Assembly: GCF_001426885.1 (NCBI RefSeq)
Contig: NZ_LMFP01000003.1
Coordinates: 248,001-312,000 of the forward strand
Source: Pelomonas sp. Root1444
Lineage (GTDB): Bacteria; Pseudomonadota; Gammaproteobacteria; Burkholderiales; Burkholderiaceae_C
Length of the DNA: 64,000 nucleotides
Direction of reading: 5' to 3'
Numbering within the stretch: position 1 is the stretch's first letter; each line of letters opens with the position of its first letter. The position numbers were made by a program, and so were the translations under genes. The notes below the pieces were generated by a model. The model searched no databases, was not told the origin of the DNA, and saw only the letters and a list, made by a program, of their open reading frames with translations. Shown here piece after piece: positions 30,321-55,237 of the stretch.

Positions 30321-30355
30321 GCGGCCTCGCGCGGGAGCGCGGGGCCGCACGTTTT
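30321..30355 (+). terminator. Rho-independent terminator after the terC-like gene
   Basis: The stem GCGGCC-CGCGC / GCGCG-GGCCGC, with one bulge on each arm and a GGGA loop, is followed by ACGTTTT. It lies 7 bases after the stop and ends at the convergent ureD stop. Confidence 0.8.
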
Positions 30356-31197
30356 CAGGTCGCCCAGATGCGCGGCTCGGCCGTCCGTAGCGACCACAGC
30401 CGCTCGCGCCACAGCGCCCGCACACGCCGCAGCGCCAGTGTGACGGCCTCGACCTCGTCGCCGATGACGCGGGTCAGCAGCACGGCGCCGCGCGGGCCGG
30501 CCAGGTGCGTGATGCCTGACCTGGGCACGCCGTCCAGCAGCGCGCGGCTCGCCGTCAACAACCCTTCCACGTCGGCCAGCGCGCCGGCCTGCGCATAGGC
30601 CAGCGTGCCCAGCACCCGGTGGCCCGCCAGGCCACACGGGCCGTCGAGCAAGGCCTTGTCCGCCGCGTCCAGCCAGCCCCGGTCCAGCCATTGGCATTGG
30701 CCGCTGATCTCCAGGTGCTGCAGCAGCCGGCCGGTGTCGAAAGGCTGGCTGGCGGCGGGCAGCCCCAGGCCCAGCACCTCGGTCGCGAACAGGCTGGCGC
30801 CGGGCGCGAGGTTGAGCCTCACCTCGTTGCGCGCGATGCAGGCGGGGTAGGCCAGCGTCTCCTGCGGCAGCCACTCAAGGCGCGCGCCCTCGCCCACGTT
30901 GGCGTGCACGAGCTGCGTCGCCTCCCCCGCGTTGGAGCGGTAGAAGCGCGTGGCGGCCGGCGTGGTGACGAGCAGGTGTGCGCCGGCCTGCAGCTCGAGC
31001 TGGATGTCGAGCCGGTCGCCGCCGACCAGGCCACCGGGCGGGTGCACGAGCACCGCATGCGCAATGCCGGCGCCCTCCGGGTGGAGCGTCTTCAGGAGCC
31101 GCAGCGGGCCGTCGTGGCGGGCATGCACGCGCGTCGCGCCACCGCCGTCGCGCGCGGCGGTCAGCACCAGCCGCGCGGGCCAGCGGATCTCAGACAA
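30355..31197 (-). CDS. ureD: Urease accessory protein UreD
   Basis: 280 residues. UreD binds apo-urease first and forms the platform for UreF and UreG. Typical segments are [25 protein letters not shown] and WLPQETLAY. It is the last gene of the accessory operon and overlaps ureG by 8 bases. In most Burkholderiales ureD precedes ureA; here it is at the far end from the structural genes. Confidence 0.95.
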
Positions 31198-31825
31198 GCA
31201 GGCCCTTCTTCTCGATGAAGGCGACGACCTCGGCCAGGCCCTCGCGGGTCTTGAGGTTGGTCATGACCCAGGGCTTCACCGGCCGCATGCGCGCGGTGTC
31301 GCTGCGCATCACGTCCAGGTCGGCGCCCACGTGCGGCGCCAGGTCGGTCTTGTTGATGACGAAGAGGTCGCTCTTCGTGATGCCGGGGCCGCCCTTGCGC
31401 GGGATCTTCTCGCCGGCCGCCACGTCGATGACGTAGATGGTCAGGTCGCTCAGCTCGGGGCTGAAGGTGGCGGCGAGGTTGTCGCCGCCGCTCTCGACGA
31501 AGACGATGTCCGCGTCGGGGAACTTGTCCAGCATGCGGTCCACGGCTTCGAGGTTGATGGAGCAGTCCTCGCGGATGGCGGTGTGCGGGCAGCCGCCGGT
31601 CTCCACGCCCATGATGCGCTCCGGCGCCAGCGCGCCGGCGACCGTCAGCAGGCGCTGGTCTTCCTTCGTGTAGATGTCGTTGGTGACGACGACGAGGTCC
31701 CAGTTGTCGCGCATCGTCTTGCAGAGCATTTCGACGAGGGTGGTCTTGCCCGAGCCGACGGGGCCGCCGACGCCCACGCGCAGCGGCGGCAGCTTTTTGG
31801 TGCGGTTCGGAATGGCGTGCATCAT
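31190..31825 (-). CDS. ureG: Urease accessory GTPase UreG
   Basis: 211 residues. This SIMIBI-class GTPase delivers Ni2+ to urease. The P-loop is [10 protein letters not shown]. The metal-binding Cys-Pro-His appears in [14 protein letters not shown], the switch [15 protein letters not shown] follows, and [10 protein letters not shown] is the G4 motif. A methionine codon at 31822 is an alternative start. The gap of 109 bases to ureF contains a repeat copy in the opposite orientation. Confidence 0.97.
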
Positions 31826-31830
31826 GTCTG

Positions 31831-31907
31831 CCCCTCGTTCGTCGAGTACGCCGAACGATCCCCCGAGGGGATGGCGGGCCGGCTTGGGGCGGCCCGGCGC
31901 TCGGCCC
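31831..31907 (+). repeat. Dispersed intergenic repeat, short copy between ureF and ureG
   Basis: The plus strand reads box GCCCCTCGT, hairpin TTCG...CGAA, box CCCCCGAGGGGA, then GCGGGCCGGCTTGGGGCGG and CGGCGCTCGGCCC. The order is the same as in the 26.5 and 55.9 kb copies, but the first hairpin sequence differs and the second hairpin is missing. It stands against the direction of the ure operon, between the ureF stop and the ureG start. Confidence 0.8.
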
Positions 31908-31934
31908 TTCTGGAAGTGGTGGTCATCAAGATAT

Positions 31935-32621
31935 TCATGAGCGGAACAGTCTCGAATATTGCGTTTCGTGGCGGGCGCCGTGGATGCCGAGCAGCGGCGC
32001 GAACGCCATCGGCTCGGGTGCAGCCAGGGCGGTCGCCACGGCTGGCGGGATGGCGTGCACGAGGCGTGCCAGCAGGCGCTGGCCGGCCGTCTGGCCGAGC
32101 GGCACGCAGCGCACGGCAGCCTGCATCAGATTCTCGGCCCAGCCGAAGGCGATGGCCGTCAGCGCAGGATTCAGTGCGGCGCCCCGTGACGCAGCCACGG
32201 CTCCCATCACCACGGGCCAGGTGGGCGCGGGCTTGAGCTGCTGCAGCAGCGGCAGCACCGGCGCATCGGGCACCAGCCCCTGCATCCAGACCACCAGGCT
32301 GCGGCCCATCTGCTGGGCCTGCTGCAGGCTCTCGCTGGTCTCGCGGGTCTGCAGCACCCAGGCGTTGAGCGCCGTGAGCCGCGCACCGTCCAGCGCCAGC
32401 GTGGCAGCATGCGCGGCGGCGGCCACGGGCAGTTCGGCGCGGGCCTGCACGAGTTCGAGCTGGTTCAGCAGCCAGTCGCCGGCGCTGGTCTCGTCGTGCA
32501 CGAGGCCCGCGTCGACCGCCGCCTCCAGGCCCTCGGAATAGCTGAAGCCGCCGACCGGCAACGCCGGGCTGGCGAGCCACAGCAGGTGCAGCAGCGTGCT
32601 GTCGGCCGGCGGCGGTTGCAT
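31935..32621 (-). CDS. ureF: Urease accessory protein UreF
   Basis: 228 residues from ATG 32621, which shares its A with the stop of the upstream barrel gene. It is all-helical, with the family opening [21 protein letters not shown]. UreF gates UreG GTP hydrolysis and joins UreD to UreG. The C-terminal tail ([11 protein letters not shown]) is the part that contacts UreD in known complexes. Confidence 0.94.
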
Positions 32622-33214
32622 CAGAAGTTGAAGGCGATGCCAGCACCCAGCGTGCGCACGGTGACCGTCTGCTTGGGGCCGCCGGAGGTTTCGCGCAGGT
32701 CGGCGCGCGTCCAATCCGCATTCAGGCTGGTGCTCCAGTGGCGCGCGAACTGCCAGGAGAGCCCGAAGCCGAGATAGGGCTTCACGGCAGTGGTCGAGAT
32801 GGTCCCCGGGTTCTGGTCCAGCAGCCCGACGGCCGGCTGCAGCTTCAGCCCGTTCGACGCCCCGCCGAACCGGACCAGGGCGCCCACGCTGCCCGACAAC
32901 GGCAAGGTGTAGGCCGCGCCGAGACCGAAGCTCGTGAGCTCTGCGGAATAGCTGCGCAGGAAACCCCAGTCAGCGTCGATGTGGCGGTAGGTCACCTCGA
33001 ACGCCCACGACGGGTCGAACCGGTGTCCGGCACGCACGACATGGCTCACGTCCACGCGGCTGCAATCGGTGTTGGCGGGGCAGTTCAGGCTGACCTTGCC
33101 GGTGCCGCGTTCCACGCCGATGTAGTTGGCGGCCGCCAGGTTGGGCGCCTGTGCGAAGGCGTTGCTGGCCAGGCCGAGCGCGAGGCCGGCCAGCGCCGTA
33201 CGGATGGTTGTCAT
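32621..33214 (-). CDS. Small outer-membrane beta-barrel protein inside the urease accessory operon
   Basis: 197 residues with a signal peptide (about 1-22, ending SNAFA-Q). Alternating hydrophobic strands and a C-terminal Phe (GAGIAFNF) mark an OmpX/OmpW-size barrel. Two Cys lie in an N-terminal loop (LNCPANTDCS). It is translationally coupled to ureF by a TGATG overlap and lies 124 bases after ureE. It might let urea or Ni2+ through the outer membrane, but only its position supports this. Family assignment beyond an outer-membrane barrel is not secure. Confidence 0.75.
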   Translation of the reverse strand: MTTIRTALAGLALGLASNAFAQAPNLAAANYIGVERGTGKVSLNCPANTDCSRVDVSHVVRAGHRFDPSWAFEVTYRHIDADWGFLRSYSAELTSFGLGAAYTLPLSGSVGALVRFGGASNGLKLQPAVGLLDQNPGTISTTAVKPYLGFGLSWQFARHWSTSLNADWTRADLRETSGGPKQTVTVRTLGAGIAFNF

Positions 33215-50605: not shown

Positions 50606-51130
50606 CTATTCGCCCACATCCATCTCCGCGCCGCTCACACTTGCCCACCCTGACTCGATGACGCCTTCGCGAATGAAGCGGTGGATGCTGGAGTGCGGCC
50701 AGTCCGCCGCCCGTTCGGCCCAGCCATGCTTCACCGGATTGAAATGGATGTAGTCCACATGCCGCTCGAAGTCGACGTCGTCGCGGATGAGGTGCTCCCA
50801 GTAGCGCCGCTGCCAAAGCCCCCGCTCGCCCTTTGAGGCACGGCTGGCGCTGATGCGTTCGCCCTGAGGGACCCGCCGCGAGAACCCTTGTTTGATGAGC
50901 ATGATGCGAGTGGCGAAGTCCGCGTCCTCGCGCGGCAAGGTCATCAGCACGTGCAGGTGGTCGGGCAGCACGCAAATCGCGTCCATGACGAACGGGCGTG
51001 ACTTGCGTACGGTGCGGAAGCTGTCCCGCAGTGCGTCGATGTGGTTCGTCAGCAGTTGACCGCTGCGGTCGGCCGCGTTCAGCGTCAAGAAGTACGTGGC
51101 ACCCGGCGTATCGGCGCGGCGATAGCGCAT
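50606..51130 (-). CDS. REP-associated tyrosine transposase (RAYT, Y1 family)
   Basis: 174 residues from ATG 51130; the longer frame reads through a REP. It is a single-domain Y1/HUH-type nuclease. The HUH motif is HLHVLM in LPDHLHVLMTLP. The catalytic Tyr is probably in HVDYIHFNPVKHGW, a hallmark of RAYTs. RAYTs cut REP-flanked single-stranded DNA and are thought to spread REPs without moving themselves. REP units flank the gene on both sides. Confidence 0.93.
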   Translation of the reverse strand: MRYRRADTPGATYFLTLNAADRSGQLLTNHIDALRDSFRTVRKSRPFVMDAICVLPDHLHVLMTLPREDADFATRIMLIKQGFSRRVPQGERISASRASKGERGLWQRRYWEHLIRDDVDFERHVDYIHFNPVKHGWAERAADWPHSSIHRFIREGVIESGWASVSGAEMDVGE

Positions 51131-51139
51131 CGTGTTTCC

Positions 51140-51218
51140 GTAGGTTGGGGTGAACGCAGTGAACCCCAACGAGCTATGGCGGTCAAACGTTGGGGTTCGC
51201 AGGCTCACCCCAACCTAC
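51140..51218. repeat. BIME: paired inverted REP units upstream of the RAYT
   Basis: One REP in direct orientation (51140-51171), a short spacer with GGCGGTCAAA, and one in inverse orientation (51188-51218) make a large hairpin. A partial third unit (CACCCCAACCTACC) follows at about 51228-51241. An almost identical pair stands at 51330-51409. Confidence 0.9.
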
Positions 51219-52738: not shown

Positions 52739-54453
<1,715 letters not shown>

Positions 54454-54457
<4 letters not shown>

Positions 54458-54759
54458 AGCTTGCCTTGAACCAAACCGCGGAAGCCGTAGACCGTGCGGT
54501 CGCCGGCCAGGTCGACCAACTCGACGGTGCGCGTTTGCCCGGGCTCGAAGCGAACGGCCGTGCCGCTGCAGATGTTCAGGCGCATGCCGCGCGCGGCCTC
54601 GCGGTCGAAGGCGAGTGCGGCGTTGGTCTCGGCGAAGTGGTAGTGCGAGCCCACCTGGATGGGGCGCTCGCCGCTGTTGGCGACCTTCAGCGTCAGCGTG
54701 CGACGGCCGGGGTTGAGTTCATGCTCGCCCTCGGCGGTGATCAGTTCGCCGGGGATCAT
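54454..54759 (-). CDS. ureB: Urease beta subunit
   Basis: 101 residues from ATG 54759 ([16 protein letters not shown]). [17 protein letters not shown] is the family signature. The start shares its A with the TGA of the small His-rich gene upstream, so translation of the two should be coupled. Confidence 0.97.
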
Positions 54760-54920
54760 CACTTGCGGCCCTTGGTGAACCACCAGACGGCCACGCCGGC
54801 CGCGGCCACCAGGGCCAGCGTGGCGGTGCCGTCCCAGCCGTGCATGTGCGGGCCGGCGGGGCCGTGGCCTTCATGGGCGAACGCGGGGGCGGCGATCAGG
54901 AGCAGGGCAAGTGCGCGCAT
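54759..54920 (-). CDS. 53-residue His-rich membrane protein between ureA and ureB
   Basis: A short gene from ATG 54920 to TGA 54759. A hydrophobic signal-like start ([15 protein letters not shown]) is followed by [16 protein letters not shown] with four His, one membrane helix (about 32-46), and a basic end WWFTKGRK. Its stop overlaps the ureB start in TGATG and it lies 14 bases after ureA. A nickel-related role, such as a small accessory of uptake or sensing, is suggested by position and His content only. It may be a reduced HupE/UreJ-like protein. I know no named family for it. Confidence 0.7.
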
Positions 54921-54934
54921 GGTGGGCAGGCCGT

Positions 54935-55237
54935 TCAGGCAATGGGTTGGTGGACGGTGACGAGCTTGGTGCCGTCCGGGAAGGTGGCTTCGACCTGGAT
55001 CTCCGGGATCATCTCGGCGATGCCGTCCATGACGTCGTCGCGGGTCAGGACCTCGCGGCCCTCGCTCATCAGCTGGGCGACGGTCTTGCCGTCACGCGCG
55101 CCTTCGAGGATGGCGGCGCTGATGAAGGCGACGGCCTCGGGGTAGTTGAGCTTCAGGCCACGGGCCTTGCGCCGTTCGGCGAGCAGCGCCGCAGTGAACA
55201 AAAGGAGTTTGTCCTTCTCACGTGGAGTTAATTCCAT
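54935..55237 (-). CDS. ureA: Urease gamma subunit
   Basis: 100 residues, the usual length. [20 protein letters not shown] and [21 protein letters not shown] are the family signatures. It is the first structural gene, 31 bases after the nitroreductase stop. It shares one operon with the small His-rich gene, ureB and ureC. Confidence 0.98.

What the first reader, a model, noticed from the sequence alone, without database searches (positions are those of the whole stretch)
54759..54920. Unannotated 53-residue His-rich membrane protein locked between ureA and ureB
The gene is short enough to be missed by usual gene calling. It has a signal-like start, [13 protein letters not shown], one membrane helix and a basic end. 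TGATG overlap with ureB forces coupled translation. A periplasmic His cluster in a nickel-enzyme operon suggests a metal-related small protein that might be new.
Basis: partly seen in the sequence, partly recalled or inferred. Interest (0 to 1): 0.75.

Follow-up and report, generated by a model that had tools for sequence, protein, structure and literature searches.

The report
Histidine-headed one-pass nickel-gene companion
Tucked between two urease genes is a real, very small membrane protein that seems to expose a histidine cluster outside the inner membrane, and its distant relatives often sit beside other nickel and cobalt genes, which suggests an overlooked kind of metal-supply helper.

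Summary
Window 54920..54759 (minus strand) encodes 53 residues between ureA and ureB, with a TGATG overlap into ureB. It is a selected gene: pooled pN/pS is 0.37 in 12 congeners, and one species differs by 7 bases, all silent. In 47 homologues H16, H19, H25, H27, D30 and W46 are invariant, and H16 follows an A-x-A-like signal-peptidase site. The family is large: at least 2468 database proteins; none of the 120 listed has a Pfam domain.

The ureA-ureB gap in Burkholderiales mostly holds nothing, this one-pass protein, or the multi-pass nickel permease UreJ, even within the window's genus. Profile searches by sequence alone found 34 further stand-alone one-pass relatives outside the window's family; 27 lie beside urease, [NiFe]-hydrogenase, Ni-superoxide dismutase, HypA/HypE or cobalt (CbiX, CbtA) genes.

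Best explanation: a secreted, membrane-anchored Ni/Co-capturing head that feeds metal into the cell. The metal link is well supported; binding and transfer are inferred. The window's genome has no HupE/UreJ, NicO or CbiM match, so its partner is unknown.

The parts
54759..54920 (-). Small ORF, 53 aa, between ureA and ureB (stop included)
   Evidence: purifying selection; homologues
54876..54920 (-). Signal peptide, residues 1-15, predicted cleavage AFA|H
   Evidence: -1 Ala in 46 of 47 and -3 small (A/V/T/S) in 47 of 47 homologues; helix 2-15 in model. Cleavage itself is inferred.
54840..54875 (-). Periplasmic His head, residues 16-27 ([12 protein letters not shown])
   Evidence: H16, H19, H25, H27 invariant in 47 homologues; loop in model. 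Side of the membrane is inferred.
54774..54839 (-). Single membrane helix, residues 28-49 (with invariant D30 and W46)
   Evidence: helix 28-49; mean pLDDT 91 and 97 in residues 31-40 and 41-50; hydropathy; invariance
54759..54773 (-). Basic end (KGRK) and stop codon
54757..54761 (-). TGATG stop/start overlap with ureB
54935..55237 (-). ureA, urease gamma subunit (100 aa)
   Evidence: PF00547
54454..54759 (-). ureB, urease beta subunit (101 aa from the overlapping ATG)
   Evidence: PF00699; start read
52739..54457 (-). ureC, urease alpha subunit (572 aa)
   Evidence: PF00449 and PF01979
31938..32630 (-). ureF (extent of the tblastn match)
31190..31825 (-). ureG
   Evidence: 63% identity to a UreG
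30355..31197 (-). ureD
   Evidence: ORF; as a query it matches loci whose gene is PF01774; not itself scanned with Pfam

Best explanation
A real small gene for a nickel/cobalt supply helper. The signal peptide is removed, so the mature protein begins with a free N-terminal histidine (H-x-x-H-G...H-x-H) held in the periplasm on one membrane helix with a basic cytoplasmic end. This head captures Ni2+ (Co2+ in the cobalamin-linked relatives) and hands it to an importer in the inner membrane, so that metal uptake rises with synthesis of the nickel enzyme beside whose genes it is made. In many relatives the same slot holds the multi-pass permease UreJ, whose own N-terminus has the same signal-then-histidine design. 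Shown: gene, conservation, modelled fold, slot exchange with UreJ, and association with Ni/Co genes across families. Inferred: signal cleavage, membrane side, metal binding, direction (uptake) and the identity of the importer.
For: Selection: pN/pS 0.366 in 12 congeners and 7 silent of 7 differences against G008. Invariant residues: H16, H19, G20, H25, H27, D30, W46 in 47 of 47 homologues aligned (47 of the 135 listed, picked by id before I saw their sequences), with +1 His 47/47 and -1 Ala 46/47. Slot: 191 ureA-ureB junctions split into direct 72, small protein 56, UreJ 49, other 14; in the window's family small / UreJ / direct / other are 54 / 47 / 15 / 3 of 119. Among 20 genomes of the genus 12 carry the small protein, 4 carry UreJ behind ureA, 1 (G006) has a collapsed locus and 3 have no ureA match. 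Guilt by association: 27 of 34 stand-alone relatives outside the family lie beside Ni/Co genes, spread over 20 families, against 0 of 15 loci of chance matches from the same searches (Fisher P 1.1e-7). A second copy in G303, inside the window's family and not counted, lies beside a hydrogenase large-subunit gene (L269). Fossil: the leftover ORF of G006 has lost the second His of the head. Precedent: N-terminal-His domains joined to HupE/UreJ-2 permeases bind metal (PMC12537917; abstract, outline and found passages seen).
Against: No metal binding or transport was measured here. The window's genome has no HupE/UreJ, NicO or CbiM match at E 1e-6, so the importer is unidentified (other transporter families were not searched), and enrichment of permease-free genomes is not significant (19 of 35 against 4 of 15, P 0.12). 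7 of 34 relatives have no Ni/Co gene in view: 3 beside tatC, and L249, L253, L386, L389. 72 of 191 ureases have nothing in the slot. One DUF6732 protein (L035) has Asp instead of His at +1. The passages seen on Ang-1 and Ang-2 in PMC12537917 centre on copper, so a His head need not be nickel-specific.
Confidence: 0.55

Rival explanations
1. A miniature permease: several copies of the one-pass protein assemble into a pore or carrier and replace UreJ outright, rather than handing metal to another importer.
For: It occupies UreJ's own slot; none of the 49 UreJ gaps holds a second small His ORF of this pattern. UreJ and small protein alternate within one genus. The window's genome lacks HupE/UreJ, NicO and CbiM matches. 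One-pass forms that keep or resemble UreJ's first helix exist (L398; L067, L081, L233).
Against: 10 of 35 genomes with the small protein also hold a strong UreJ elsewhere (E < 1e-30); the window protein's helix has one charged residue (Asp30) and three threonines, few ligands for a pore; HHalign gives no homology to UreJ (probability 0.5%).
Confidence: 0.17
2. A periplasmic nickel sink or sensor that limits free metal, protects the membrane, or signals nickel status, rather than promoting uptake.
For: His clusters at the periplasmic face would serve storage equally well; the same gene neighbourhoods would be expected.
Against: Only four histidines per 38-residue mature protein, poor for storage; I noticed no regulator gene beside it in the loci read, but did not search for one; exchange with a permease gene points to supply.
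Confidence: 0.12
3. A shrinking UreJ relic, or a translational spacer whose amino acids do not matter and which only couples ureA to ureB.
For: Tight spacing: 49 of 59 overlap ureB or end within 15 nt of it. Truncated UreJ-like forms exist at the same slot (L067, L081, L233). Profiles of the small proteins also hit UreJ N-termini: 6 loci, 10 and 4 (L402 weakly).
Against: Purifying selection, seven invariant residues, and related proteins beside ureG, ureD, hydrogenase, Ni-SOD and CbiX where no ureA-ureB coupling is involved.
Confidence: 0.05
4. A membrane factor for another step, such as holding the nickel enzyme or its chaperones at the membrane through its cytoplasmic end.
For: Genes of cytoplasmic chaperones (ureG, ureD, hypA, hypE) are common neighbours.
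Against: The conserved part is the His head and the helix; the basic end varies in length and sequence.
Confidence: 0.06

Closest known systems
HupE/UreJ nickel permeases (Pfam PF04955)
   Same: Same slot between ureA and ureB in 49 of 191 junctions; same design at the start, signal peptide then histidine; profiles of the small proteins also hit UreJ N-termini.
   Different: One membrane helix instead of several (about six, recalled); no PF04955 match listed for the window's protein; no HPxxGxDH in the helix; HHalign probability 0.5%.
Anglerases Ang-1/Ang-2 (PMC12537917, Nat Commun 2025; abstract, outline and passages seen)
   Same: Mature N-terminal histidine outside the inner membrane, in one chain with (anglerases) or in the gene slot of (here) HupE/UreJ-type permeases.
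   Different: Anglerases are folded domains (beta-sandwich for Ang-2) joined to HupE/UreJ-2 (PF13795); this is a 12-residue head on a single helix.
DUF6732 (Pfam PF20506), function unknown
   Same: Same build (H-x-G-H...H-x-H, one helix, basic stretch); 12 of 36 gap proteins match it at E 0.1 or better, best 1.2e-5, and 11 of 20 of the wider set at 0.01, that set including two taken from loci over the cut-off. All 7 genomes over its cut-off carry it beside a CbiX-like cobalt chelatase gene.
   Different: The window's protein scores 18.3 bits against a cut-off of 27; the seven DUF6732 proteins read have a long, mostly acidic tail behind the helix and sit by cobalamin genes.
CbtB, CbiN/NikN (small subunits of Co/Ni transport systems; recalled)
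   Same: Small membrane proteins of metal uptake beside enzyme genes; one relative (L391) lies beside cbtA.
   Different: No Pfam match to them listed for P0002 at E 10; no CbiM match in the window's genome.

Membership tests
HupE/UreJ (PF04955) | Profile match over the curated cut-off | tested here: not met
   no match listed for P0002 (HMMER's filters drop most matches above E 0.1); 1 of 20 relatives at E 0.003
HupE/UreJ (PF04955) | Several membrane helices, roughly 190 aa | tested here: not met
   53 aa, one helix besides the signal
HupE/UreJ (PF04955) | H-x5-D-H motif at the first helix (motif recalled; seen as HPFTGLDH) | tested here: not met
   Window protein has HMHGWDG; present in the one-pass forms L398 and L251
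HupE/UreJ (PF04955) | Common descent by profile-profile comparison | tested here: inconclusive
   HHalign probability 0.5%, E 0.12; mean pairwise score 45.8 against 40.1 (sd 0.8) for shuffles and 34.6 and 41.6 for later UreJ segments
Anglerase (Ang-1/Ang-2) | Mature N-terminal histidine after a signal peptide | tested here: inconclusive
   His at +1 in 47 of 47 with small residues at -1 and -3; cleavage itself untested
Anglerase (Ang-1/Ang-2) | Folded N-terminal domain joined to a HupE/UreJ-2 domain | tested here: not met
   12-residue loop and one helix
DUF6732 (PF20506) | Score over the gathering cut-off of 27 bits | tested here: not met
   18.3 bits, E 0.0021; 26.1 bits in the genome search, which read past stops
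Nickel/cobalt-linked one-pass His proteins (this report) | Signal peptide, His at +1, H-x-G-H start, one helix, basic end | tested here: met
   (signal by pattern only)
Nickel/cobalt-linked one-pass His proteins (this report) | Binds nickel or cobalt | not testable with these tools
   needs biochemistry

The most novel reading that the evidence does not exclude
A general and undescribed class of minimal metal receptors: a free N-terminal histidine cluster on a single membrane helix, used again and again in Pseudomonadota beside three nickel enzyme types (urease, [NiFe]-hydrogenase, Ni-SOD) and beside cobalt insertion genes. It would be a stripped-down 'anglerase' that either feeds an unrecognised importer or itself replaces the multi-pass permease UreJ, exchanging with it within a genus.
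Probability: 0.4. Interest if true: 0.85.

Novelty: new variant of a known kind. Interest (0 to 1): 0.75.

Why it matters
Some bacteria with nickel enzymes have no recognised nickel permease; PMC2667541 (passages seen) counts 62 bacteria with Ni proteins but without Ni transporters or transporters of unassigned function. Here 19 of 35 tested genomes with this small gene lack HupE/UreJ, NicO and CbiM matches (other transporter families not searched). A one-pass His protein encoded inside or beside nickel operons gives a direct, testable candidate for the missing step. It is also a clear case in which a 53-codon gene, left as 'hypothetical protein', becomes readable through its neighbours.

Tried and rejected
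Homology to UreJ by HHalign: no support. Pairwise scores are above shuffles but weak. The UreA+UreB(+C) trees are too noisy to tell gain from loss: S/UreJ changes were 27 against 32-40 in the ten printed label shuffles. The genus tree mixes UreJ and small-protein species with only moderate support.

My first 'control' list (35 loci) was not clean: 8 had Ni genes. L039 and L049 are UreJ; L040, L043 and L053 are the same loci as L262, L247 and L269; L041 is a further small protein beside ureG; L018 and L046 lie beside ureF-ureG without a small protein that I could read. So 2 of the remaining 29 stand against me. I therefore quote the chance matches of the three searches themselves: 4 (L255, L257, L261, L263), 7 (L369, L372-L375, L378, L379) and 4 (L395, L397, L401, L403): 0 of 15 hit the panel, though L257 lies beside a HupE-like ORF that the panel missed. 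In one search I had used 12 such loci, one of them (L367) wrongly: one search shows that it is a UreJ.

The mature-His cut was made at a His, so its 54 of 54 for H1 is partly by construction; the independent figures are those. Not every ureA match was fetched: the table holds 119 loci of the window's family and 72 of other families, while one search had 98 positive genomes outside the family. In one search, 6 of 198 loci were set aside (4 without ureA, 2 without ureB). In one search, 9 mid-gap loci (8 without a His/helix ORF, and L074, the window again) and 2 loci with an acetyltransferase-like ORF (L205, L089) were dropped from the small and UreJ sets. UreJ was assigned by gap size; 46 of 49 show the G-x-D-H-[LM] motif, L114 and L125 were read as UreJ by eye, and L100 was read in the wrong frame there but has a PF04955 match at the place. 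Not counted among the 34: L388 (multi-pass) and L400 (no helix), both beside Ni-SOD, L380 and L381 (query members), and L269 (inside the window's family). No solved-structure or fold search was made: the model is one helix besides the signal.

Full report
OBSERVATION. ureA ends 14 nt upstream (54935), and the ORF's stop overlaps ureB's ATG as TGATG. Pfam confirms ureA, ureB and ureC. AlphaFold with an alignment of 47 gives helix 2-15, loop 16-27 and helix 28-49 (mean pLDDT 80, pTM 0.43): signal peptide, His loop [12 protein letters not shown], one membrane helix, basic end.

IT IS A GENE. One search (60 relatives) found it beside ureA and ureB in 12 species of the window's genus, the window included (flanks), and in more distant genera. 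Among the 12, pooled pN/pS is 0.366 (66 pairs); the other frames give 1.00, 1.85, 1.28, 0.57 and 2.06; ureA and ureB give 0.10 and 0.14. The nearest species differs by 7 bases, all silent. Of the 20 genus genomes, 4 carry UreJ in the slot instead, 3 have no ureA match, and G006 has a collapsed locus: no PF00547 match, only the two ends of ureA, no ureA, ureB or ureC match in the 3.1 kb around. Its leftover ORF has lost the second His of the head (HDGHG to HDGQG). That is one case, but what loss of constraint would look like. Some relatives in databases are named 'hypothetical protein' (Roseateles, Pelomonas); a shared contig length links G011 to Pelomonas cellulosilytica, so the genus is most likely Roseateles (inference).

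A LARGE FAMILY WITH NO CHARACTERISED MEMBER SEEN. A profile of 36 gap proteins finds 2468 proteins at E 0.001 or better among the 7990 candidates scored (120 listed, none with a precomputed Pfam domain). In an alignment of 47 (of the 135 proteins listed) H16, H19, G20, H25, H27, D30 and W46 are invariant. His sits at +1 in 47 of 47, Ala at -1 in 46 of 47, and a small residue (A, V, T or S) at -3 in 47 of 47. In the wider set of 20, His at +1 is still 20 of 20, but one DUF6732 protein outside that set has Asp there (L035). An invariant His exactly at the predicted new N-terminus makes most sense if the signal is cut and the free amino group and imidazole bind metal together (inference; the chemistry is that of the N-terminal-His proteins of PMC12537917, passages seen). 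A scan of named genomes found 157 relatives and kept the best 80 (Polaromonas, Hydrogenophaga, Rhodoferax, Curvibacter, Limnohabitans, Extensimonas, Tepidimonas, Aquabacterium, Malikia, Ramlibacter and others). 78 of 80 have ureA just upstream and ureB just downstream; the others are L276, whose match begins at the edge of its locus, and L298, where ureA ends about 570 nt upstream.

THE SLOT. I searched ureA in 250 genomes of the order (104 positive) and 150 of the family (111 positive) and read the DNA behind ureA where I fetched it. Of 198 loci examined, 192 have ureA followed by ureB. The gap falls into three classes: up to 66 nt, 106-387 nt and 516-851 nt. After dropping one duplicate, 191 junctions are: direct 72, small His protein 56, UreJ 49, no recognisable ORF 9, truncated UreJ-like 3, acetyltransferase-like 2. 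In the window's family, small / UreJ / direct / other are 54 / 47 / 15 / 3 of 119, in 42, 45, 15 and 3 genera. None of the 49 UreJ gaps holds a second small His ORF of this pattern. In four further species of the window's own genus UreJ follows ureA (in three, ureB is seen behind it; the fourth contig ends within UreJ); on a ureA-ureB tree three of them are intermixed with small-protein species, with moderate support. UreJ proteins also begin with a signal peptide and a histidine. HHalign does not establish common descent, although truncated UreJ-like one-pass proteins exist: L067, L081 and L233 in the same slot and L398 behind ureG with HPVLGIDHLLVLLAVG.

WHERE DISTANT RELATIVES SIT. Three profile searches used sequence only: A1 in 349 genomes of the phylum, A4 in 293 of the class, and A5 in 327 of a second class, probably Alphaproteobacteria (genomes unnamed). 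Leaving out the window's family, members of the query alignments, HupE/UreJ proteins hit at their N-terminus (6, 10 and 4), chance matches and proteins that are not one-pass, 34 stand-alone one-pass His proteins remain: 12, 10 and 12. Of these 7, 10 and 10 lie within 1.5 kb of a nickel or cobalt gene, 27 of 34, from 20 families (family codes tallied). They are: downstream of ureG (L247, L260, L262, L390, L398); upstream of ureD (L353, L361, L363, L365); between ureA and ureB in the second class (L392, L394); beside [NiFe]-hydrogenase subunits (L248, L354, L359); beside hypE or hypA (L250, L259, L351); beside Ni-SOD (L355, L366, L370); beside CbiX (L256, L382, L384, L385, L387, L393); beside cbtA (L391). 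Identities come from ORF reading and tblastn, with Pfam confirmation of at least one locus for UreF, UreG, UreD, hydrogenase small and large subunit, cytochrome b, HypA, AIRS domains as in HypE, Sod_Ni, CbiX and CbtA. The seven exceptions are three beside tatC (L251, L254, L258) and L249, L253, L386, L389. Of 15 loci of the three searches where the match was chance, none hit the panel of Ni/Co genes (Fisher P 1.1e-7). In an earlier, unclean control list 2 of 29 did. Inside the window's family, a second copy in G303 lies beside a hydrogenase large-subunit gene (L269). The second and third searches used queries that included Ni/Co-linked sequences; the hits are other genomes, but several share a family, so 27 are not 27 independent events.

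NICKEL PERMEASES ELSEWHERE. In 80 of the 119 family genomes (35 small, 30 UreJ, 15 direct) I searched PF04955, PF03824 and PF01891 at E 1e-6. The window's genome has none of the three. Of 35 small-protein genomes, 13 have any PF04955 match (10 below 1e-30), 2 NicO and 5 CbiM; 19 have none of the three, against 4 of 15 direct genomes (P 0.12). NikABCDE and other transporters were not searched. So the small protein is not simply a subunit of UreJ, NicO or CbiM, and its partner in the window's organism is unknown.

MECHANISM. Best supported: a secreted, membrane-anchored metal head that raises local capture of Ni2+ (Co2+) at the periplasmic face and passes it to an importer, produced in step with the enzyme that needs the metal. 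Shown: gene, selection, invariant residues, modelled fold, slot exchange with a permease, Ni/Co neighbourhoods. Inferred: cleavage, membrane side, binding, direction and partner. The boldest reading not excluded is that the protein itself replaces UreJ as a miniature permease.

COMPARISON. It works like the anglerases of PMC12537917 (an N-terminal His at the mouth of a HupE/UreJ-type permease) but is not one: no folded domain and no fused permease. It is not a HupE/UreJ by profile or helix number. DUF6732 is the nearest Pfam family (18.3 of 27 bits); the seven genomes over its cut-off all carry it beside a CbiX-like gene (ORF reading; Pfam for L032). No paper held in the library mentions DUF6732, and nine paper searches listed none whose title or abstract start describes a small protein between ureA and ureB or a one-pass His protein common to nickel operons; only listings were seen, except passages of PMC12537917, PMC2667541 and PMC5840417 and the abstract and outline of the first. 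UreJ between ureA and ureB in Bordetella is from memory, not from a call.

CHANGES AFTER CHECKING.

Noticed in passing
window 30355-32714 and 52739-55237: The urease cluster is split: ureD, ureG and ureF (minus strand) lie about 20 kb from ureABC, with other ORFs between them, one of them (50606-51208) REP-transposase-like by my reading.
   Followed up: partly
L251, L254, L258 (f53 genomes): One-pass His proteins downstream of a tatC gene (Pfam for L251); L251 carries HWLLEFDH, the UreJ-type H-x5-D-H motif; the tie to nickel is unclear.
   Followed up: partly
L253: A one-pass His protein follows an arginase-family gene and a His-rich 139-aa ORF with no Pfam match; possibly a nickel-dependent ureohydrolase setting.
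   Followed up: no
L269 (G303, window's family): A second one-pass His protein, in a genome that also has the ureA-ureB type, lies beside a [NiFe]-hydrogenase large-subunit gene.
   Followed up: partly
L400 and L388: Beside Ni-SOD: a 42-aa His-rich secreted peptide without a helix (L400), and a 138-aa multi-pass protein with AHPGHEH after its signal (L388).
   Followed up: no
L089 and L205: Two ureA-ureB gaps hold an acetyltransferase-like ORF instead (my reading).
   Followed up: no
L323: A contig filed as a Chitinophaga pinensis MAG carries the Burkholderiales-type ureA-small-ureB arrangement; probably mis-binned.
   Followed up: no
L391: A one-pass His protein follows cbtA in a cobalamin region, beside a CobB-like ORF (my reading); it may stand in for CbtB.
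   Followed up: no
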